Position numbers and translations under genes: made by a program. Source: a virus. Taken from it: a DNA stretch of 64,000 nucleotides. A model generated the notes under the pieces. That model did no database searches and was not told the origin of the DNA. It saw only the letters and a list, made by a program, of their open reading frames with translations. Below, piece after piece: positions 8,411 through 50,856 of this stretch. The DNA is taken from the IMG/VR virus record IMGVR_UViG_3300030329_005488, positions 1 through 64,000 of that record. The stretch is one strand, 5' to 3'. Numbering within the stretch: position 1 is the stretch's first letter; the number at the start of each line of letters is the position of its first letter.

Positions 8411-8656
8411 TCACAGGCCCACCCATCCAGCAATCTTGTCCTTCCACCAGATAACGAAATTATCCCATACACTGTAATCCATCCTCACTTCGATATATGA
8501 TGTCAGTAAAACGGCGATTACCACAGCGATTATGGTGCGAATCCAAGAAAAGCCTCGATAATAGTATTCATCTAATTTATTCTGAGTATGTAAAGCCCGC
8601 AATGTCGACTCGGTAGCATCATCTCCCGGGGTTTTGAATAACCAGCCCACATTCAT
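8411..8656 (-). CDS. Small single-span membrane protein
   Basis: This 81-residue protein has one hydrophobic segment (about residues 40-56: WIRTIIAVVIAVLLTSYIEV) followed by an aromatic-rich tail (VWDNFVIWWKD). It overlaps the upstream gene by ATGA and ends immediately before the GTPase start. It is not recognised. The three-gene run of membrane protein, membrane protein and GTPase suggests a membrane-associated complex. Confidence 0.65.
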   Translation of the reverse strand: MNVGWLFKTPGDDATESTLRALHTQNKLDEYYYRGFSWIRTIIAVVIAVLLTSYIEVRMDYSVWDNFVIWWKDKIAGWVGL

Positions 8657-36202: not shown

Positions 36203-37090
36203 ATGAAAATAGAACAAATGATTGGAATAGACGACCCAACCCATGCGGTTGGACATGTGAAAAGAATACTTGAAGAATCAGAGGAGATTCCTGACCTTCT
36301 CTTTGTTGGGCCTCCGGGCCTTGGTAAAACGACCTTGGCTCACGCCATTGCTGACTATGTGAATGCTGAACTACATGAGTTCAATGCGAGCGATGAGCGT
36401 GGTATTGATATGGTCCGTACACGAATAAAGGAACTCTCCACCCAGCGTGGATGGGGAGAGAATCGCATCATCCTTCTTGATGAGGCTGATGGATTAACTA
36501 AGCAGGCACAGGATGCGCTGCGCAGAATCATAGAGACTGGGCAAGCGTGGTTTATCCTAACTGCTAACGTAGAGAGTAATCTCATACCTGCTCTTCGTAG
36601 CAGATGTAACACAATAACATTCACACCGTATAATGAAGAGCACATTCAACAATTCATTGGGATGCTCGACCCTTCCTATGATGTCGATGAGGAGACGGCT
36701 TGTCGTATCCAGACAGCAACAGGAGGAGACCTGCGCAGAGTGCGCAACCTCATCATGTCTTCCTCAGTGAGGGAAGACCTTGACCGCGCTATCGGTAATG
36801 AGATGAATACTATATCTCAAGCAGCCCTGTCTTTGATAGGTGGTGCTTGGGAAGATTTGAGATTGGAGATGCAGAAACTGTCATGGGAAGGACATGATAG
36901 ATTTACCATTCTGCGCAGACTCCACGACATCGTCAGAGAGATGGTACCTGATGCCATGACTGCTGATGATTTCTATGCATATTCCAGTGTATGGGGCGAC
37001 GCCGTCCTATCTGCACATCTATGGCCCTTGGGTGACTCAGGGTTCATTGATTGGTTTGTAGGTAAAGTGGCTGTCACAGCACGGGACTGA
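36203..37090 (+). CDS. Clamp loader small subunit (RFC-S-like)
   Basis: In this 295-residue product, Walker A GPPGLGKT (36-43), Walker B LLDEAD (91-96), sensor-1 region FILTANVES (117-125) and the SRC arginine-finger motif (133-135) are all present in RfcS order. It is slightly shorter than cellular RfcS (about 320), mainly at the C-terminus. It would load the sliding clamp onto primed DNA; the large subunit is presumably supplied by the host. First gene behind promoter copy 2, with a very strong ribosome site. Confidence 0.92.
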   Translation: MKIEQMIGIDDPTHAVGHVKRILEESEEIPDLLFVGPPGLGKTTLAHAIADYVNAELHEFNASDERGIDMVRTRIKELSTQRGWGENRIILLDEADGLTKQAQDALRRIIETGQAWFILTANVESNLIPALRSRCNTITFTPYNEEHIQQFIGMLDPSYDVDEETACRIQTATGGDLRRVRNLIMSSSVREDLDRAIGNEMNTISQAALSLIGGAWEDLRLEMQKLSWEGHDRFTILRRLHDIVREMVPDAMTADDFYAYSSVWGDAVLSAHLWPLGDSGFIDWFVGKVAVTARD

Positions 37091-39460: not shown

Positions 39461-39687
39461 TGGCATGCAGTGTGTGTGGGGAGACAGGGCATAAGGCTCC
39501 GAGTTGTAAATACAACGAGCCGCCCGTCCTCCACTTTGTAGTGCAGAGTGAACGCCTATGTTCTGAGGAAATCGATACTGGTGTGCCTGAGATGTGGCAA
39601 ATCGGTGACCGTGTGAAAGAAAGACCGCTCTGTGCACTATGCTCGACTGAATATCTTGTTCGTTTTGGTAGGATGTTCACATGGTGA
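39460..39687 (+). CDS. CCHC zinc-knuckle protein
   Basis: In this 75-residue product, CSVCGETGHKAPSC (3-16) is an exact CX2CX4HX4C retroviral-type zinc knuckle, which binds single-stranded nucleic acid in other systems. A second pair CALC lies near the C-terminus. It lies between the RecA-like and clamp-like genes and overlaps the latter by 7 nt. Confidence 0.7.
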   Translation: MACSVCGETGHKAPSCKYNEPPVLHFVVQSERLCSEEIDTGVPEMWQIGDRVKERPLCALCSTEYLVRFGRMFTW

Positions 39688-40436
39688 GATTGAATATCGA
39701 TAAGGCCCTCCTCAAGGGGTTCTTGACAGGCTTCGGCCCGGGGGTCGGTGACCTTCGGGCTGAGGCCAAAGCAGGGAGATTGGAGGGTATAGTTGCCCTC
39801 CCCACTCATCTCTTGAGGACTCAGATGCCTGCCGATGTGGAGGACGCAGGAGAGGTTGTCTTCAGTGACATTCCAAAGGTTCTCTCTTTCCTCAAGGCCT
39901 TACCTAAAAGCGCCAACATCATCAACATATGGCAACCAAAAGGGCGCCCACTCAAGATGTCCTGTGGGATGACCAGTGTAGAGATGCCTGCTTCTGACTA
40001 CATCCGCTCTTATGTGAATGTACCTCGCGCGCTTCTCTTGGTTGATGAGGCAGAGAATGACCTCTGGAAGAGTTGGGCTGGTCAACCATTGACCTCTCAT
40101 ATGCTACTGAAGACACAGTGGTTAGGTGAAGTCAGTGACATGCAAAAGGTCGTTGGGAAGGACATGACATATTCTACCATCTTCGACCCTCAACAAGCGC
40201 AGTTCAGTGTATCAGCAGGGCGCGCAGGTGGTGTGAAGATGAAGGTGGGTAATGAACTGGAGACCTTCGATGGTCCTGAAGCATCTTCGATATTCGGACC
40301 TTGGTTCCCTACATTGATGCAGTGCATCCCTACTGGGGTAGTGGATGTCTTCACTGCTGACGACTACATCTTGGTACTCCGACATGTTGAGAAAGAACAT
40401 CTACTCATTATTCTCGACCAGCAAGGGGGGAATTGA
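39681..40436 (+). CDS. Probable sliding clamp (PCNA-like)
   Basis: The 251-residue length is that of PCNA. The N-terminal pattern (ADVEDAGEVVFSDIPKVLSF followed by LKALPKSANIINI) and two-part alpha/beta layout fit a clamp. The C-terminal VLRHVEKEHLLIILDQQ takes the place of the usual final strand. Sequence similarity is low. Context is strong: RFC-S upstream, PolB downstream, and neighbouring proteins with PIP boxes. Confidence 0.6.
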   Translation: MVRLNIDKALLKGFLTGFGPGVGDLRAEAKAGRLEGIVALPTHLLRTQMPADVEDAGEVVFSDIPKVLSFLKALPKSANIINIWQPKGRPLKMSCGMTSVEMPASDYIRSYVNVPRALLLVDEAENDLWKSWAGQPLTSHMLLKTQWLGEVSDMQKVVGKDMTYSTIFDPQQAQFSVSAGRAGGVKMKVGNELETFDGPEASSIFGPWFPTLMQCIPTGVVDVFTADDYILVLRHVEKEHLLIILDQQGGN

Positions 40437-40535
40437 ATGGACAAGTACGAGGAAGAGAAAGAGAAGCGTCGTTTGAGTGCTCTCAAAGGTTGGGTCACAC
40501 GTCGCAAGAAACTCAAGGAGGGTGAAGAGGAATGA
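40437..40535 (+). CDS. 32-residue charged microprotein
   Basis: ATG 40437 immediately follows the clamp stop. The peptide is a Lys/Arg/Glu-rich helix (KYEEEKEKRRLSALKGWVTR). It ends in ATGA with the HNH gene. Confidence 0.5.
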   Translation: MDKYEEEKEKRRLSALKGWVTRRKKLKEGEEE

Positions 40536-41305
40536 TAGTAACGGAGAAATTCACCAACTCCCATGGGGACGAATGGGTATTTGAATATGATTCTGAGGTA
40601 GGCGAAGGTATTCTGAAAGGCTCAGATATCGACTGGGAAAGTTACCCATGTAGAGAAAGGTCTAACCTCGGCCTTATTCTCAATAGTGAGGAAAGGGAAT
40701 GGCTTGAAGAAGTATGGACGGATGTGCATGTGCATGCTCGCTCATGGTCAAATGAGGGAGTGGTGTCTCGACGAGAAAAGACAAGAGTTCGAGATTATTG
40801 GCGAGATAAACCTGAAACTCAATATTTCAACCCTGATTGGGATGAAACGAATTGGTCTTGTTTTGCGTGCGGAATAGAATGTGGTGGTTACATTGACAGT
40901 GCCCATATTAGGCCAAGAAAAAGAGGAGAAGTAAAGGGGGTAAAGCCCGGAACAGAAAACAATATCCATCTTCTTTGTAGAGTATGTCATACTGAAAGCG
41001 AAGGTCTGTTAGAACGAGCATATTGGCATTGGCTTCACCTCAAATCTATGATATATAATAAAGGGAATTTAGAGAACATTCTTTTGCGGGACCCTTATTT
41101 ACCATCAATTTCGATTGATGATGTAACGTATGATTGTTATGCCGTTCAACAAATATCAACACTCATAAAAACATCAAGAGAACATATTCATGGCGCTTCT
41201 AATAAAGTAGAGCGCTATTATACTACAGCACTCAAAGACCGTGAGGGTAATCCTATTGGCCCAGAAATGACTTCTATTATGATTGGGGATGAAGATGAAT
41301 GTTGA
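40532..41305 (+). CDS. HNH endonuclease
   Basis: In this 257-residue product, CFACG (110-114), SAHIRPRKRG (about 124) and HLLCRVCH (about 146) form the zinc-containing ββα-metal HNH site, with the catalytic His in AHI. Base composition after about 40800 is more AT-rich than the flanking polymerase. It sits exactly between clamp-like and polymerase genes, a favourite location for free-standing homing endonucleases. Probably a selfish insertion or an exclusion nuclease. Confidence 0.8.
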   Translation: MIVTEKFTNSHGDEWVFEYDSEVGEGILKGSDIDWESYPCRERSNLGLILNSEEREWLEEVWTDVHVHARSWSNEGVVSRREKTRVRDYWRDKPETQYFNPDWDETNWSCFACGIECGGYIDSAHIRPRKRGEVKGVKPGTENNIHLLCRVCHTESEGLLERAYWHWLHLKSMIYNKGNLENILLRDPYLPSISIDDVTYDCYAVQQISTLIKTSREHIHGASNKVERYYTTALKDREGNPIGPEMTSIMIGDEDEC

Positions 41306-43668
41306 TTGATAATATATTCAGAGACGATGATACTCCTATTATCTACACTCGGTCAAGAGATGAGAGTGGTAATCTTATTGAGCGTAGACAGTTCGATTTC
41401 AAACCTTATTTCTGGGTACCGGCAAGCACACCTGAGTTTCGTCTCAGTAGACTCAAGCGCTCCTTCCCTACGGCACGTGTGTGTCAAGATGAGACAGCCA
41501 CAGGTTTGGACGGGGCACCTCTGTTCAAGATAGAAGCACACAGTCCTTATGATGTCACAAAGATGCGCGAGATGTTTGAGCGCACCTATGAAGCGGATGT
41601 TCGATTTACTGACCGATGGCTCATTGATAATGTTCAGGAGATGCCAACATGGAAACCGCGTAAGTGGTGGTATGACATAGAATGTGACACTGGAGACGAT
41701 TCATTCACTACCGTCATCGCTGTCATTGATAGTGACCTTGACACCCCTGTGGTGTTCGCTTGGGCCGATGACCGAACCAATTGTCCTTACTCACTTACAG
41801 GACGAAGTAGAGAATTGATTCATAGAAAAGTGCGCGATGTAGAATATGAATTACATCTCTGTTTCAGTGAGAGGCAGTTGTATGAGAATTTCATTGACTT
41901 CCTCCATGAGCGGGACCCTGATATGATGATTGCTCACGCAGGAACTTTCTTCGACATACCTCACATGGTTGAGCGCCTTGACCATATCTATGGGCATGGT
42001 GGCGCTTCTCGATTGAGCCCTCTTGGTATCATTCGTAGACCGAGAAGAGGGGAAGACTCCTACGATTTCACAGACCAACCTATCGCTGGTCGCTGGCAGT
42101 TCGACACTGCTTCCCCTGCTCAGAGCGGTACGGGTTTCGAAAGGGTGTGGAAGGATAGTGGTGGCGGCCAACTACCAGACAGGAAGTTGAATACCATCGC
42201 TGAGATTCTGGGCCTTGGCTCTAAACTCACAGAGGAGATTGAAGGGATGGATGTACACAATGGTTGGTATGAATACTGGGAAGAATTCATCGACTATTGT
42301 CTGTTAGATACTGTTCTCCTTCGTGGTATTGACGAGGCGCGAAACGTGACAGACTTCTATGTAGAGATGGTTCGTCTCTGTGGGGTCAGTCTACAGTCAG
42401 CCTGTAACGTCACGAACTTTGCACGCGGGCTTCTATCACGTAGAACACAACGTAAGGCAGCATCGCGTTTCCGTGCATCTGATGACCAGAAATTGAAAGG
42501 CGCAGAAGTAGGGTTGAATTGTGTGACTGGTCTCCATGAGGGAGTTGCCATTATCGATTACAAGGGACTATACCCTTCTCTCATCGTTGGGCATAATTTA
42601 TCCTATGAAACAAAACGTGATGGGCCCGGGGAAGGTATTACTCAATTGGAGAATGGGTCTTACTGGGACCAGAGAGAGAAAGGACTTCTACCTAAAGTGG
42701 TCGACTATCTTTTCGAGTATCGCGCAATCTGTAAAGAGAACATGAAGCATGCTAAGAGTGTCGAAGAAAGAGATGCTTGGAACACAACCCAGTCTGCTGT
42801 AAAGAGAGTCATGGCTTCCCTTTATGGTATGACTGCGCACATTGGATATGGTTGGGCTGACGCAGACATCGCTCATACCATCACAAGTGAGGGTAGAAGA
42901 TGCATACGATTATTAGACAAGGTCTCTTCTCAGCGTGGATACGAATGTTTGTACGGTCACACTGACAGCGCCTTTGTCAAAGTACCATTAGATGACGCTC
43001 ACAATCTTGCAGAAGCCATCACAGAAGTTGTTCAGAAAGCGACTGGTAATGAAAGGCTTGTGGCGGAATTAGAAGCATGGATGCCTTACTGGCTATTAGC
43101 GAAAAAGAATCGCTATGTTGGTCGCATCGAATGGCCTGTTGAAGAAGAAGGGAAGATGAAAGTAGCAGGGTTCGGCCTAAAGGCGAGCAATACTGCACCC
43201 CTCTCTAAAGAAGTACAGAGGCTGGTATTTGAAATGGTCTTGAATGGGGCGTCAGAAGGCGAAGTATCTGAAGTCCTTCTCCCCCTTTCTAAGGACTTAC
43301 GTGAAGGTGTCATTGACATCAAACGTGTATCTCTCTCTACACGTTTAGGAATGAATCTGAGAGATTACAAAACATTGAGCGGTGGTAGTAAAGCCGCCGA
43401 TTACTACAACAGAAACATGGGAGATGACCCCTTCAAGAAGGGGGACTCTGTCAAATGGACTTACGTGTCATCAACACCTTCAGGTATGGAGGTGACTGAC
43501 ATTGTCGGGTTCCGTGAGCCTTCTGATATAGAAGGTTTCGAACTCGATGCTGAAACCATCCTTCAGAAGATGGTGAAAGCGAAACTGAAGAGTGTGTACG
43601 ACACACTCGAATGGGACCTTGAGGGAGCACTCGGGGCACCAAGACCGAAGAACTACGGATGGTGGTGA
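41299..43668 (+). CDS. polB: Family B DNA polymerase
   Basis: This 789-residue product has proofreading motifs Exo I DIE (126-128), Exo II AGTFFD (about 214-219) and Exo III YCLLD. Polymerase motifs are A DYKGLYPSLI (about 419), B KRVMASLYG (about 502) and C YGHTDS (about 551), where His replaces the usual Asp of YxDTDS. KKNRY follows. Length is typical for archaeal/viral PolB. The C-terminus (PRPKNYGWW) lacks the PIP box that archaeal PolB normally carries; the next two reading units do carry such motifs. It overlaps the HNH gene by 7 nt. Confidence 0.95.
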   Translation: MLIDNIFRDDDTPIIYTRSRDESGNLIERRQFDFKPYFWVPASTPEFRLSRLKRSFPTARVCQDETATGLDGAPLFKIEAHSPYDVTKMREMFERTYEADVRFTDRWLIDNVQEMPTWKPRKWWYDIECDTGDDSFTTVIAVIDSDLDTPVVFAWADDRTNCPYSLTGRSRELIHRKVRDVEYELHLCFSERQLYENFIDFLHERDPDMMIAHAGTFFDIPHMVERLDHIYGHGGASRLSPLGIIRRPRRGEDSYDFTDQPIAGRWQFDTASPAQSGTGFERVWKDSGGGQLPDRKLNTIAEILGLGSKLTEEIEGMDVHNGWYEYWEEFIDYCLLDTVLLRGIDEARNVTDFYVEMVRLCGVSLQSACNVTNFARGLLSRRTQRKAASRFRASDDQKLKGAEVGLNCVTGLHEGVAIIDYKGLYPSLIVGHNLSYETKRDGPGEGITQLENGSYWDQREKGLLPKVVDYLFEYRAICKENMKHAKSVEERDAWNTTQSAVKRVMASLYGMTAHIGYGWADADIAHTITSEGRRCIRLLDKVSSQRGYECLYGHTDSAFVKVPLDDAHNLAEAITEVVQKATGNERLVAELEAWMPYWLLAKKNRYVGRIEWPVEEEGKMKVAGFGLKASNTAPLSKEVQRLVFEMVLNGASEGEVSEVLLPLSKDLREGVIDIKRVSLSTRLGMNLRDYKTLSGGSKAADYYNRNMGDDPFKKGDSVKWTYVSSTPSGMEVTDIVGFREPSDIEGFELDAETILQKMVKAKLKSVYDTLEWDLEGALGAPRPKNYGWW

Positions 43669-43673
43669 AAAAA

Positions 43674-43766
43674 ATGCAAAGAAAACTGACAGAATGGAAT
43701 ATGGAAATAGAGAACGGGACGACACAAACGACGCTGACTGAATGGGGTTTGACTTTCGATGTCTAA
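43674..43766 (+). CDS. 30-residue microprotein with two PIP-box-like motifs
   Basis: ATG 43674 lies 5 nt after the polymerase stop, in another frame. The stop overlaps the next gene's ATG region (43759). The peptide is almost only two PCNA-binding-like motifs, QRKLTEWN (2-9) and QTTLTEWG (18-25), close to archaeal PIP boxes such as QxxLxxW. It could tether or compete for the clamp. Size is below normal calling limits, but packing and motif content support it. Confidence 0.6.
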   Translation: MQRKLTEWNMEIENGTTQTTLTEWGLTFDV

Positions 43767-43974
43767 ATTTGAAAAGCGTGTTGTTGACCGCATTGAAAAG
43801 CGCGCAGAGAAAGGACTGGACACATACGGGGTGAGTATGGAAAGAGGTGACCTCTCTTTACAAGAGTGGTTACAACATCTACAAGACGAACTCCTTGATG
43901 CGGCAGTCTATGTCGAGAAACTCAAAGAGGAGGTAGAAGAACTTGAGCGATACAGGGCCGAGAATATACAGTGA
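43759..43974 (+). CDS. MazG-like/phage helical protein
   Basis: This 71-residue product carries KGLDTYGVSMERGDLSLQEW and HLQDELLDAAVYVEKL, matching small phage proteins often placed in the MazG-like all-alpha NTP pyrophosphohydrolase group (EExxD-type ligands in QDELLDA). If active, it would clean the nucleotide pool. Whether this short version is catalytic is uncertain. Confidence 0.6.
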   Translation: MSKFEKRVVDRIEKRAEKGLDTYGVSMERGDLSLQEWLQHLQDELLDAAVYVEKLKEEVEELERYRAENIQ

Positions 43975-44866
43975 TGGCTCATCATATGGTTGGACTCCTG
44001 AAATGGATGATACTATCATCCGTATCAGTAAGTCTACATTGGTGAGTACTAAATGGTGTGCTCAGCAAATGTGGCTCAATAAGAACCACCCAGAGGTGGA
44101 GACTGAACTCAACTCATGGCTCGTCATTGGAAACGATGTGCACTATGCTCTGGAATACTTTTACGACAACGCGAAACCAGATGAACTACCAGAACTACAA
44201 GCAAGAGCGAAGAACGGAGATATGCGTTTAGTCAAAGGGGCCCTGAAGAATTGGTTACCTTCCACAGAGCAGATTATGGACAATAGAGATGAGCGTAGCC
44301 GGGCAGAGCCATTGTATGAAAGAGACTACAACCATAATATACAATGGCTCTTAGCGCATGAAGCCTCCCGACTTACCCACACCACAGTTGAGAATTTCCT
44401 ACCTGTGGCAAATGAAGTAATCTTGACACCGAGAATAGAGGTAGAAGGAGTACCTGTACAATTAGTCGGTATCATTGACCGCGTCTTCCTCGATGATGAT
44501 GGGGGGCTGGCTTTGATGGAACTGAAGACAGGGAAATGGGATGAGAGATACAAATTATCCGAGATGAGAATGGAGATGTCATTCTATAAGATGCTCATTG
44601 AGAATAGTGACCTTCAGGAATTACAGGAAAAGAATCTGGACCGTGCAGTGACTCACTGGGGTTGGAGGTATAGTGCCGCTGACCATGTATCATATGAGAA
44701 ATGCAAGCGTGTGAGTGAGCGGGCTATGATGAAACGTCTGGGAGACCTTGTGAAGATGTATTTGGAAGAGTCTTTCAAGATGGCTGACCCTAACCGTGAA
44801 GGCTTCAAATGCGCACGCTGTGAATATATGCAATGGTGTCCTCAATACAGGAGTGGTGACGAATGA
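43943..44866 (+). CDS. Cas4/RecB-like PD-(D/E)XK nuclease with Fe-S cysteines
   Basis: TTG 43943 has GGAGGT 8 nt upstream; ATG 44003 is the fallback start. With TTG, 307 residues. Conserved His in NDVHYALEYF (about 67), Asp in GIIDRVF (about 179) and E-x-K in MELKTGKW (about 193-195) form the nuclease site. One Cys near the N-terminus (39) and CARCEYMQWC near the C-terminus match the four-Cys 4Fe-4S pattern of Cas4/AddB-type exonucleases. Likely 5'-3' end-processing in replication-recombination. No CRISPR array is present. Confidence 0.82.
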   Translation: MSDTGPRIYSDGSSYGWTPEMDDTIIRISKSTLVSTKWCAQQMWLNKNHPEVETELNSWLVIGNDVHYALEYFYDNAKPDELPELQARAKNGDMRLVKGALKNWLPSTEQIMDNRDERSRAEPLYERDYNHNIQWLLAHEASRLTHTTVENFLPVANEVILTPRIEVEGVPVQLVGIIDRVFLDDDGGLALMELKTGKWDERYKLSEMRMEMSFYKMLIENSDLQELQEKNLDRAVTHWGWRYSAADHVSYEKCKRVSERAMMKRLGDLVKMYLEESFKMADPNREGFKCARCEYMQWCPQYRSGDE

Positions 44867-45201
44867 AAAGAAACGCGATAACATATCTACTACAAGAGGC
44901 TCTACAGGAAAGAATCAATGGCGCTAAAATCTATGTTGAATGGGGAGGTAAATCCCCAGAGCGTGGCTTTGTGATAGAGAAGTCAGGTAGGAGGGGTATT
45001 GATATCCGCCTCGATAATTCATGGTTCGTTAATGAGATAGATATCATTGAGTTGTGGAGAAACCTGAAGAAGTGGGTAGATTGGTGGAATGCTGAAGAAG
45101 CGGAGTCTCCCAGTAGACAAGCGAGGCTTGATGAATTCTTTGATGTGAACACAGGTAATGATATCACAGGGAAGCAGACTACATTGGATGAGTGGTTCTG
45201 A
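44863..45201 (+). CDS. Small protein ending in two PIP boxes
   Basis: In this 112-residue product, residues 1-80 are a small alpha/beta domain of unknown family. The tail holds QARLDEFF and, at the very C-terminus, QTTLDEWF, both full matches to the PCNA-interacting consensus QxxhxxFF/WF. It overlaps the Cas4-like gene (ATGA) and the primase gene (TGATG), so it is probably a clamp-bound adaptor in the replisome. Confidence 0.75.
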   Translation: MKRNAITYLLQEALQERINGAKIYVEWGGKSPERGFVIEKSGRRGIDIRLDNSWFVNEIDIIELWRNLKKWVDWWNAEEAESPSRQARLDEFFDVNTGNDITGKQTTLDEWF

Positions 45202-48740: not shown

Positions 48741-49339
48741 GCGACATCATGGTATTAGATATTGAGACATCGAATTTCTCTTATGAGATAGGTGGATGGG
48801 ATAAGACCCATCTTTTCGACCCAGTCATCGTGGCTACTTGGGATGGTGAGGAAGGGCATCTTTTCTCTAAACAGGAGATAGATATCGCTGATAGTACATG
48901 GCACCCATTACATCCTAAAGTTCTCGGAGAACATCTTGAGAATCACATAAAGAAAGGCGGGAAAATCATAGGTCACAACATCTGTGGTTTCGACCTCCCT
49001 ATTTTGCGCGATGCATTAGACTGCCATTATGCAGGTGTCCTTTTGGGTAAATCGAAGGAACTCCTGATTGACACAGCGAGAGTACTTCGTCAATTGACAG
49101 GATACGGTGTGCCCTTGGATGATGTATGTAAAGCGACTCTGGGTGAAGGTAAGGAGTCCATGGGCTCCGCCGATGCGCCTGTCGCGTGGAGAGAAGGAAG
49201 GCATGCTGAGGTAGCCAAATATTGTCTTGAAGATTGTAAGATGAATCTTGAACTATTCAACCATGGTAGAGAACATGGTATGATAAAGTCACGTAACGTA
49301 TCCACTGGCATCATCGATGATATCGAGGTACTTTGGTAA
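48737..49339 (+). CDS. DEDD 3'-5' exonuclease (DnaQ/RNase H-like fold)
   Basis: TTG 48737 overlaps the previous stop and has AGGAGGG upstream; ATG 48749 is the alternative. In this 200-residue product, DIET (Exo I), GHNICGFDLPIL (Exo II) and YCLEDCKMNLELF (Exo III, YxxxD so DEDDy) are present. Separate from the polymerase's own exonuclease; could trim primers or recombination intermediates. Confidence 0.82.
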   Translation: MSDIMVLDIETSNFSYEIGGWDKTHLFDPVIVATWDGEEGHLFSKQEIDIADSTWHPLHPKVLGEHLENHIKKGGKIIGHNICGFDLPILRDALDCHYAGVLLGKSKELLIDTARVLRQLTGYGVPLDDVCKATLGEGKESMGSADAPVAWREGRHAEVAKYCLEDCKMNLELFNHGREHGMIKSRNVSTGIIDDIEVLW

Positions 49340-49353
49340 ATGGAGGAAAAAAA

Positions 49354-50856
49354 ATGACAGAAGAAAGAAAAACTGGAAGAGAAGCCCAATTGAGTAACAT
49401 ACGAGCAGCGGTGAATGTCGCTGAAACAGTGAGGTCTACATTAGGACCTGCGGGAATGGATAAATGTCTCGTGAATGAAACAGGGGACACCATTATCACA
49501 AATGATGGTGTCACTATTCTGCGAGAATTAGATGCTGTACATCCCGGCGCGAAAATGATGGTTGAAGCAAGTAAGACGCAAGAAGCGGAATGTAAAGACG
49601 GCACGACAAGTGTAGTGGTTCTTGCAGGGCAGTTGTTGGCTCTTAGTGAAGGGTTACTGATGAGGGGGATTCATCCCAGAACGATTGTGCGTGCTTTCAA
49701 TGAGGCGTGTACAATCGCCTTAGATAATTTACCTGAAGGGGACTCTGAGATAGACCCTCATGATGTGGCGAGAACAGCACTGAGAGGTAAGGCTGCCGAA
49801 AGCCATTTGGAAAAGGCGTCATCTTTGTGCCAAGAAGTTGTTTATTCTGTGAGGGGGGACCTTGACAACATCCGTGTCCTTTCACAGTCTGGTGGTTCGA
49901 TAGATGATTCTTACATCCATAGTGGTCTGGTATTAAGTAAAGGATTCTCGACTGATGTGAAACATGATACTGAGGGCCGTATTCTGATGCTTGATGGTGG
50001 CTTAGATGGATTCAATATGCAAGATGTGCAGATGCAATTCACTGACCCTACTCAAATACAAGCCATACAACAACAAGAATTGACCATGCTAAGTGCGGCA
50101 GCACAACGTATCGTGGACCTTGGAGTCGGCATTCTGTTTGTCAGAGACGGTGTCCATGAAGCCATTGTTAAATATCTATCATCTCAGAAAATTGCTGTAG
50201 TATCAAGACTGCAAGATTCAGATATGACTGCACTCTCTCACATTACCGGCCATCCAGTATATCACCGGCTTATTGATGTCACAGATGCATACCAGAACAC
50301 CGAACATAAGTCAGTGGTGGATAGCCAACGTATTGGTGACCTCGATTATGTCACTGTGAGTGTACCATCATCAACTGTAGTCACACTGGTTGTGAGAGGA
50401 GCAACACGACAGACTCTTGATGAATATGAGCGCGCTTTTGATGACGCCATTGGTGTCACTGCCTTATATCACAATAATATGGCAGCGTTGCCGGGCGGGG
50501 GAGCCTCTCTATCGAAATCTGCCATAGGTGTGAGGAATTACGCCACTGGTGAAAGCGGTCTTAGTGCCCGGGAGCGAATGTGCTTGGAGGCCTATGCTGA
50601 TTCACTGGAAATTATCCCTGCCGCCATTGCTGCTAATGCAGGTATGGACCCACTTGATGTAGTGATGGAACTTCGTTCATGCCCAGATAGTTACGGGCTC
50701 TACATCGATGATAATGGAATAGGTTCTGTATGTGATACTGGCGAGCGTGCAATCTGGGAGCCTCGTGAACTCGTAAAGCAGGTCATTACATCAGCCACAG
50801 AGGTTGCTACGGCTGTTCTACGCATTGATGATATCATTGCGAGGAAGGGACAATGA
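49354..50856 (+). CDS. Group II chaperonin (thermosome-like)
   Basis: TGGAGGA 7 nt before ATG 49354 sets the start. This 500-residue product has TLGPAGMDKCLV, ITNDGVTILREL, KDGTTSVVVLAG (about 82-93; the usual GDGTT has Lys for Gly), LPGGGA (about 378) and NAGMDPLDVVMELRS, all in family order. About 45 residues shorter than cellular thermosomes, mostly at the C-terminus, with no GGM tail. Forms ring-shaped ATP-driven folding chambers, probably for virion proteins. Chaperonin genes are a known feature of magroviruses. Confidence 0.93.
   Translation: MTEERKTGREAQLSNIRAAVNVAETVRSTLGPAGMDKCLVNETGDTIITNDGVTILRELDAVHPGAKMMVEASKTQEAECKDGTTSVVVLAGQLLALSEGLLMRGIHPRTIVRAFNEACTIALDNLPEGDSEIDPHDVARTALRGKAAESHLEKASSLCQEVVYSVRGDLDNIRVLSQSGGSIDDSYIHSGLVLSKGFSTDVKHDTEGRILMLDGGLDGFNMQDVQMQFTDPTQIQAIQQQELTMLSAAAQRIVDLGVGILFVRDGVHEAIVKYLSSQKIAVVSRLQDSDMTALSHITGHPVYHRLIDVTDAYQNTEHKSVVDSQRIGDLDYVTVSVPSSTVVTLVVRGATRQTLDEYERAFDDAIGVTALYHNNMAALPGGGASLSKSAIGVRNYATGESGLSARERMCLEAYADSLEIIPAAIAANAGMDPLDVVMELRSCPDSYGLYIDDNGIGSVCDTGERAIWEPRELVKQVITSATEVATAVLRIDDIIARKGQ

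What the first reader, a model, noticed from the sequence alone, without database searches (positions are those of the whole stretch)
43674..45201. Clamp-binding microproteins next to a polymerase that lacks a PIP box
Directly after polB a 30-residue frame consists of two PIP-like motifs (QRKLTEWN, QTTLTEWG). A kilobase later a 112-residue protein ends in QARLDEFF and QTTLDEWF, both full PIP consensus. The polymerase C-terminus itself has no PIP box. The virus may have moved clamp tethering into separate small adaptors, or uses the microprotein to bridge or block host PCNA.
Basis: partly seen in the sequence, partly recalled or inferred. Interest (0 to 1): 0.78.

Follow-up and report, generated by a model that had tools for sequence, protein, structure and literature searches.

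The report
Viral microproteins made of clamp-binding motifs
Viruses of ocean archaea carry, directly behind their DNA polymerase gene, a tiny conserved gene whose product is little more than two copies of the short motif that proteins use to grip the ring-shaped DNA sliding clamp, probably to occupy a clamp (the host's or their own) during infection.

Summary
The 30-codon gene at 43674-43766 lies right behind polB with its own Shine-Dalgarno-like site and overlaps the next gene. It recurs directly behind polB in 28 of 56 non-redundant related viral loci (25 with two PIP motifs, 3 with one), in two deep polB clades (down to 43-46% polB identity). The motifs are kept, linkers and tails vary, frame relative to polB varies, and pooled pN/pS is about 0.20. 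Chance of two motifs there is about 1e-4 per genome. The 112-aa protein is a folded domain with a disordered tail carrying two PIPs; its slot-mates in other clades carry PIPs too. The 251-aa protein is a PCNA-fold clamp. PolB has no canonical PIP, but its conserved tail (P-K/A-x-Y-(G)-W/F) lies exactly where host and halovirus PolBs have theirs. The 'tethering adaptor' reading is weak: nothing beyond the motifs is conserved to grip polB, and one large polB clade, including a 103-kb record, lost the gene while keeping polB and clamp. Viral PIPs match host RNase HII and second-PolB PIPs. Best reading: a free PIP competitor, host PCNA slightly favoured over the viral clamp. Binding was not tested. 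New variant of a known kind.

The parts
43674..43766 (+). Tandem-PIP microprotein gene (30 aa): PIP-like motif 1 QRKLTEWN at 43677-43700, motif 2 QTTLTEWG at 43725-43748
   Evidence: recurs behind polB in 28 of 56 non-redundant relatives; pooled pN/pS 0.20
43661..43668 (+). GGTGGTGA, Shine-Dalgarno-like site overlapping the polB stop, 5 nt before the ATG
   Evidence: GGTGGTGA or GAGGTGA equivalents before the start in most relatives
44863..45201 (+). 112-aa second PIP protein: predicted alpha-beta-beta-beta-alpha domain (residues 2-81) plus low-confidence tail with PIPs QARLDEFF (45118-45141) and QTTLDEWF (45175-45198)
   Evidence: AF2 mean pLDDT 75, tail <50; relatives with PIP; no fold match
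41299..43668 (+). Family B DNA polymerase (789 aa); C-terminal PKNYGWW in register with the host PolB PIP
   Evidence: Pfam PF00136 2.4e-34, phrog_262; tail alignment
39681..40436 (+). Viral PCNA-fold sliding clamp (251 aa)
   Evidence: AF2 pLDDT 94.8; Foldseek best hit A. fulgidus PCNA-FEN1 peptide complex 1rxm, E 7.7e-13, TM about 0.66; relatives in 37 of 41 loci, upstream of polB
36203..37090 (+). AAA+ protein, probable RFC small-subunit-like clamp loader
   Evidence: Pfam AAA 6.3e-18, DNA_pol3_delta2 2e-12; role inferred
43759..43974 (+). Next gene (71 aa, PHROG 17558-like); its ATG overlaps the end of the microprotein gene
   Evidence: in other genomes an unrelated gene sits here while the microprotein stays behind polB
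43943..44866 (+). PD-(D/E)XK nuclease gene between the two PIP genes (start uncertain)
   Evidence: Pfam PF12705 2.7e-15

Best explanation
The 43674-43766 gene makes a free-standing PIP peptide: a microprotein whose only conserved features are one or two canonical clamp-binding motifs. It is made together with viral PolB and acts in trans by occupying PIP pockets of a PCNA-type clamp, so that other PIP proteins cannot bind. I judge host PCNA the more likely target: the virus has its own very divergent clamp and a PolB whose tail no longer follows the canonical PIP code, so canonical PIP peptides would mainly displace host PolB, FEN1 and RNase HII. The 112-aa protein would be a second PIP ligand in the same operon. 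Shown here: gene reality, conservation, motif identity, presence of a clamp-fold protein, degenerate PolB tail, host-like motif. Inferred: translation, clamp binding, competition, and which clamp.
For: Purifying selection and conservation of the motifs only; position and start site; no other conserved segment that could bind polB. Host Poseidoniales PIPs: FEN1 and PolB end Q-x-[ST]-[LI]-F-[DS]-F, RNase HII has QTSLDEW / QSSLNEW / QSSLDDW, second PolB QTRLDEWM, close to viral QTTLTEWG and QTTLDEWF. In the window, the only strong PIP candidates on replication-module genes are in the microprotein and the 112-aa protein. Viral clamp and host PCNA share a fold but no detectable profile similarity. 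PolB tail has P where hosts have Q. Secondary loss in clade B with polB and clamp retained fits an accessory, host-directed role. Precedents: p21 PIP QTSMTDFY (PMC10087552) and the small archaeal PCNA inhibitor TIP (PMC4929162).
Against: The gene stays immediately behind polB even where the following gene is swapped, which suggests a partner inside the viral replisome. In lineages without it, small PIP proteins sit directly upstream of the viral clamp gene (L086, L102, L103). The most frequent host motif (QxSLFxF) is not copied exactly. Whether the viral clamp also accepts canonical PIPs is unknown. No expression or binding data.
Confidence: 0.45

Rival explanations
1. Viral-clamp ligand: the peptide binds the virus's own clamp as part of the viral polymerase holoenzyme, either supplying in trans the PIP that PolB lost, or shielding clamp sites from host PIP proteins.
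For: Always directly behind polB, with clamp and loader upstream. Halovirus and host PolBs carry the PIP in cis at the same place. Small PIP genes next to the clamp gene in L086, L102, L103. Precedent: in human Pol delta the catalytic subunit has a non-canonical PIP and small subunits carry others (PMC10087552).
Against: No conserved sequence outside the motifs to hold polB. 28 loci with the same kind of PolB tail lack the gene. Viral PolB and the other viral replication enzymes scanned lack canonical PIPs.
Confidence: 0.35
2. Recruitment peptide: one PIP holds a clamp and the other holds a second clamp or partner, crosslinking host and viral machinery or two clamps.
For: Two motifs are kept in 25 of 28 carriers with glutamines 13-16 residues apart.
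Against: One clade keeps only the second motif (L073, L076, L084), so two are not essential. The short linker probably cannot span two sites of one ring (inference, not modelled).
Confidence: 0.08
3. The motif binds something other than a clamp.
For: Short motifs are ambiguous; position 8 is often G, not aromatic; no complex modelled.
Against: The motif matches the host clamp clients' PIPs closely; the gene sits beside clamp, loader and polymerase.
Confidence: 0.08
4. Chance ORF or a programmed-frameshift extension of PolB.
For: The ORF is short and close behind polB.
Against: About 1e-4 chance per genome; purifying selection; its frame relative to polB is 0, +1 or +2 in different genomes and each has its own start codon.
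Confidence: 0.02

Closest known systems
p21/Cip1 PIP peptide (QTSMTDFY), a competitor on PCNA
   Same: Short, probably disordered PIP that competes for the PIP pocket; the viral ...RQTKLTEFG... and QTTLTEWG resemble it
   Different: Viral one is a whole gene of 25-69 aa, usually two motifs in tandem, no other domain, behind a viral polymerase gene
TIP, Thermococcales inhibitor of PCNA (64 aa; PMC4929162)
   Same: Small archaeal protein; proposed N-terminal PIP; inhibits PCNA stimulation of PolB and FEN1
   Different: TIP is cellular, has a putative PH-like part and changes PCNA structure; no such part in the viral peptide
PIP-bearing small subunits of Pol delta (p12, p66/Pol32)
   Same: PIPs on small accessory proteins while the catalytic subunit has a non-canonical one (PMC10087552)
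   Different: Those subunits have parts that bind the polymerase; none is visible here
PBP1/PBP2 of Sulfolobus PolB1 (PMC5418573)
   Same: Small archaeal PolB partners
   Different: Not compared by sequence here; no claim of relatedness
Magrovirales replisome (Aoguangviridae and relatives; PMC10768690)
   Same: Same virus type: PolB, clamp, clamp loader, primase-like protein, chaperonin, Poseidoniales hosts
   Different: The profile read here does not mention PIP microproteins

Membership tests
PIP-motif (PCNA-binding) proteins | QxxhxxAA motif (h = L/I/M, A = aromatic) | tested here: met
   112-aa protein: QARLDEFF, QTTLDEWF full consensus. Microprotein: Q, h and first aromatic present, second position often G/N/L/M/I
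PIP-motif (PCNA-binding) proteins | Motif conserved across relatives and exposed or disordered | tested here: met
   Conservation; 112-aa tail predicted with pLDDT <50; the microprotein itself was not folded
PIP-motif (PCNA-binding) proteins | Measured binding to a clamp | not testable with these tools
   No complex prediction or assay available
PIP-type clamp inhibitors (p21, TIP) | Displaces PIP clients or inhibits clamp-dependent enzymes | not testable with these tools
   Needs biochemistry
TIP family | Putative PH-like C-terminal part | tested here: not met
   Microprotein is 25-69 aa with only the motifs conserved; no Pfam match for the window member. Not a TIP homologue
DNA polymerase accessory subunit | Conserved polymerase-binding segment in addition to the PIP | tested here: not met
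   No conserved column outside the motifs except the start Met
PCNA-fold sliding clamp (39681-40436) | Two-domain clamp fold of about 250 aa | tested here: met
   AF2 pLDDT 94.8; Foldseek to PCNA 1rxm E 7.7e-13, prob 1.0, TM about 0.66; viral PCNAs also hit
PCNA-fold sliding clamp (39681-40436) | Sequence similarity to host PCNA | tested here: not met
   hhalign probability 1.2 against 8 Poseidoniales PCNAs; no PCNA Pfam hit

The most novel reading that the evidence does not exclude
These viruses run a private clamp code plus a jammer: viral clamp and PolB tail have drifted from the canonical PIP code (Q to P, plug L/I to Y), and a canonical tandem-PIP peptide made in the same operon saturates host PCNA, shutting out host replication and repair enzymes without affecting viral replication.
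Probability: 0.25. Interest if true: 0.82.

Novelty: new variant of a known kind. Interest (0 to 1): 0.62.

Why it matters
It appears to be a conserved family of viral genes whose product is almost nothing but clamp-binding motifs, missed by the family libraries searched because it is 25-69 aa long. If it targets host PCNA it is a natural PIP peptide inhibitor and a takeover mechanism in abundant uncultured ocean viruses. If it targets the viral clamp it shows clamp binding supplied in trans after loss from the polymerase. The two are directly separable with synthetic peptides and two purified clamps.

Tried and rejected
Frameshift fusion to PolB: rejected, frame relative to polB varies and each gene has its own start. 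Chance: rejected. Microprotein elsewhere in genomes lacking it: not found in full records of L010, L081, L103 and others. Host chromosomal copies: only one weak hit in 10 genomes, E 0.09. Known family for the microprotein: none in PHROGs for the window member, no credible match in Pfam or PDB sequences. Fold match for the 112-aa domain: none below E 0.4. Mapping the PIP pocket of the viral clamp through profile alignment to host PCNA failed, so pocket compatibility is untested. The chaperonin query for host genomes found nothing; a 16S probe pattern recalled from memory found 78 loci, mostly Poseidoniales genomes. Named magrovirus references did not appear among the phage-collection PolB hits listed. 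A first scan with the primase-like protein gave only one locus.

Full report
WHAT IS THERE. The window is part of a 69,695-base IMG/VR virus record. It encodes a family B polymerase, an AAA+ protein that looks like an RFC small-subunit clamp loader, a PD-(D/E)XK nuclease, an ERCC4-type nuclease and a thermosome, a gene set like that described for magroviruses of marine Poseidoniales archaea (PMC10768690). PolB ends at 43668. GGTGGTGA at 43661-43668 is followed by ATG at 43674 and a 30-codon ORF, MQRKLTEWNMEIENGTTQTTLTEWGLTFDV, whose end overlaps the ATG (43759) of the next gene. At 44863-45201 a 112-aa protein carries QARLDEFF and ends in QTTLDEWF.

THE CLAMP. The 39681-40436 product has no Pfam or PHROG match, but an AlphaFold2 model from 28 relatives has mean pLDDT 94.8. 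Its best PDB match is A. fulgidus PCNA in complex with a FEN1 PIP peptide (E 7.7e-13, probability 1.0, TM about 0.66); viral PCNA-like proteins also match. It is a PCNA-fold clamp with no detectable profile similarity to eight Poseidoniales PCNAs (hhalign probability 1.2). Relatives were found in 37 of 41 related loci, upstream of polB.

THE MICROPROTEIN IS REAL AND CONSERVED. Relatives of polB were collected from IMG/VR. Among 56 non-redundant loci, 25 have a tandem-PIP ORF and 3 a single-PIP ORF immediately behind polB; 28 have none. Examples: MEEKKKYRQTTLHEFMPEATRQTTLEEFL (L006), MEEERQHRQTKLWEWIPNRTRQTTLEEFGVRRTTNTN (L033), MKKTRQTTLDEYGLTTDGRRQTKLTEFGMTFEVDIKRNSKDDVGEEE (L090, polB only 45% identical). 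In the alignment only the start Met, Q18, T19 and E23 (window numbering) are invariant; linkers and tails differ. Pairwise counts within close groups give pooled pN 0.045 and pS 0.221, ratio 0.20; the pairs are not independent. In first-order Markov simulations of three genomes the chance of two motifs in such an ORF was 5e-5 to 2e-4. The ORF lies in frame 0, +1 or +2 relative to polB in different genomes, each with its own start, and most have a GGTG- or GAGGTGA-like site before it, so it is not a frameshift tail of PolB. What follows it changes (a 71-aa PHROG-17558-like gene in the window, an unrelated '...MDDKLSRLARG' family in others) while the microprotein stays behind polB.

HISTORY. On a maximum-likelihood polB tree the dual-PIP label needs 4 changes against 16.8 for shuffled labels. 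It occurs in two deep clades. A 20-row clade without it (clade B) is nested among carriers with strong support, so loss there is the simplest reading; some branches elsewhere are long and their placement unsure. A profile search of whole records found no copy elsewhere in non-carriers, including 102,931-, 106,907- and 104,930-bp records, and a motif scan of most of the first two found no convincing small PIP protein.

A SECOND PIP PROTEIN. The 112-aa protein is predicted as alpha-beta-beta-beta-alpha (residues 2-81) with a low-confidence tail holding both PIPs; the domain has no PDB fold match. The same gene slot, between nuclease and primase-like gene, holds proteins of about 90-125 aa in many genomes. 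PIPs are C-terminal in L001, L002, L007, L037 and L038 (QTTLREYF, QTSLTEYL), in a middle loop in L086, L093, L095, L102, L103 and L128 (RQTTLDDFF, QTSLLEYF, RQTTLDEFF, KQMTLDEWF, KQLTLDEWF) and degenerate in L004, L033 and L036 (DPIPIDEYLD-like). Orthology across the deepest clades rests on position and a weak alignment (22% mean column identity). L086, L102 and L103 have another small PIP protein directly upstream of the clamp gene.

THE POLYMERASE TAIL. Host PolBs end in PIPs such as RQTSLFSF, RQKSIFEF and RQQSIFDF; two halovirus PolBs end in QTGLAAFC and QSGLGAFI. Viral PolBs align with them so that the PIP glutamine column holds proline and the tail reads P-[KA]-x-[YL]-(G)-[WF] in nearly all loci. 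So 'lacks a canonical PIP' is right, but a conserved aromatic tail occupies the place. Because that tail also occurs where the microprotein is absent, loss of the canonical PIP does not by itself explain the microprotein.

HOST MOTIFS. From ten Poseidoniales genomes, FEN1 and PolB end in Q-x-[ST]-[LI]-F-[DS]-F in most genomes; RNase HII has QTSLDEW, QSSLNEW or QSSLDDW in several; a second PolB has QTRLDEWM. Viral QTTLTEWG, QTTLDEWF and QTTLEEF match the RNase HII style. p21 has QTSMTDFY, and replacing its glutamine lowers affinity 58- to 126-fold (PMC10087552).

MECHANISM. The only conserved content of the microprotein is one or two PIPs, so the likeliest activity is occupying PIP pockets. A tether needs a second surface for polB, and none is visible. 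In the window, the canonical PIP users found are host enzymes plus the two small viral proteins; viral PolB's own tail is not canonical. I therefore favour a competitor acting mainly on host PCNA (0.45), with a viral-clamp role close behind (0.35), supported by strict linkage to polB and by PIP genes beside the clamp gene. Translation, binding and target are not shown.

LIMITS. All relatives are metagenomic contigs; PIPs are short; no complex was modelled; host assignment rests on gene content and literature, not on linkage; the two leading readings differ only in the target and cannot be separated by sequence alone.

Noticed in passing
window 40532-41305: HNH-domain gene between clamp and polB, with no relative in any of the 41 related loci; looks like a recent, possibly homing-type insertion.
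   Followed up: partly
L030 6001-8323 and L031 34-2356: PolB is frameshifted near residue 626 in contigs from two different data sets; could be a split gene, a programmed shift or a shared error.
   Followed up: partly
window 8411-8656 (-); locus L250 in record G001, 94103-94348: Small gene on the minus strand with PIP-like QNKLDEYY, QNTLDTYY in the distant G001 record; may be coincidence.
   Followed up: no
window 43759-43974 and equivalents: The gene after the microprotein alternates between two unrelated small families in related viruses.
   Followed up: partly
L086 3035-3238; L102 and L103 3951-4193: Small proteins directly upstream of the clamp gene with RQSTLDEFF or RQSTLGEFG motifs.
   Followed up: partly
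L251 9510-10793: 427-aa protein with QRSLDDYL near its C-terminus in the clade E record; only a sub-threshold Pfam match.
   Followed up: partly
window 49333-50856: Virus-encoded thermosome/Cpn60 chaperonin, Pfam E 1.7e-113.
   Followed up: no
p112 slot in L004, L033, L036, L047, L084: PIP position carries DP[VI]PI-x-x-Y-[LI]-D, with Q replaced by P as in the viral PolB tail; perhaps a viral-clamp variant of the motif.
   Followed up: no
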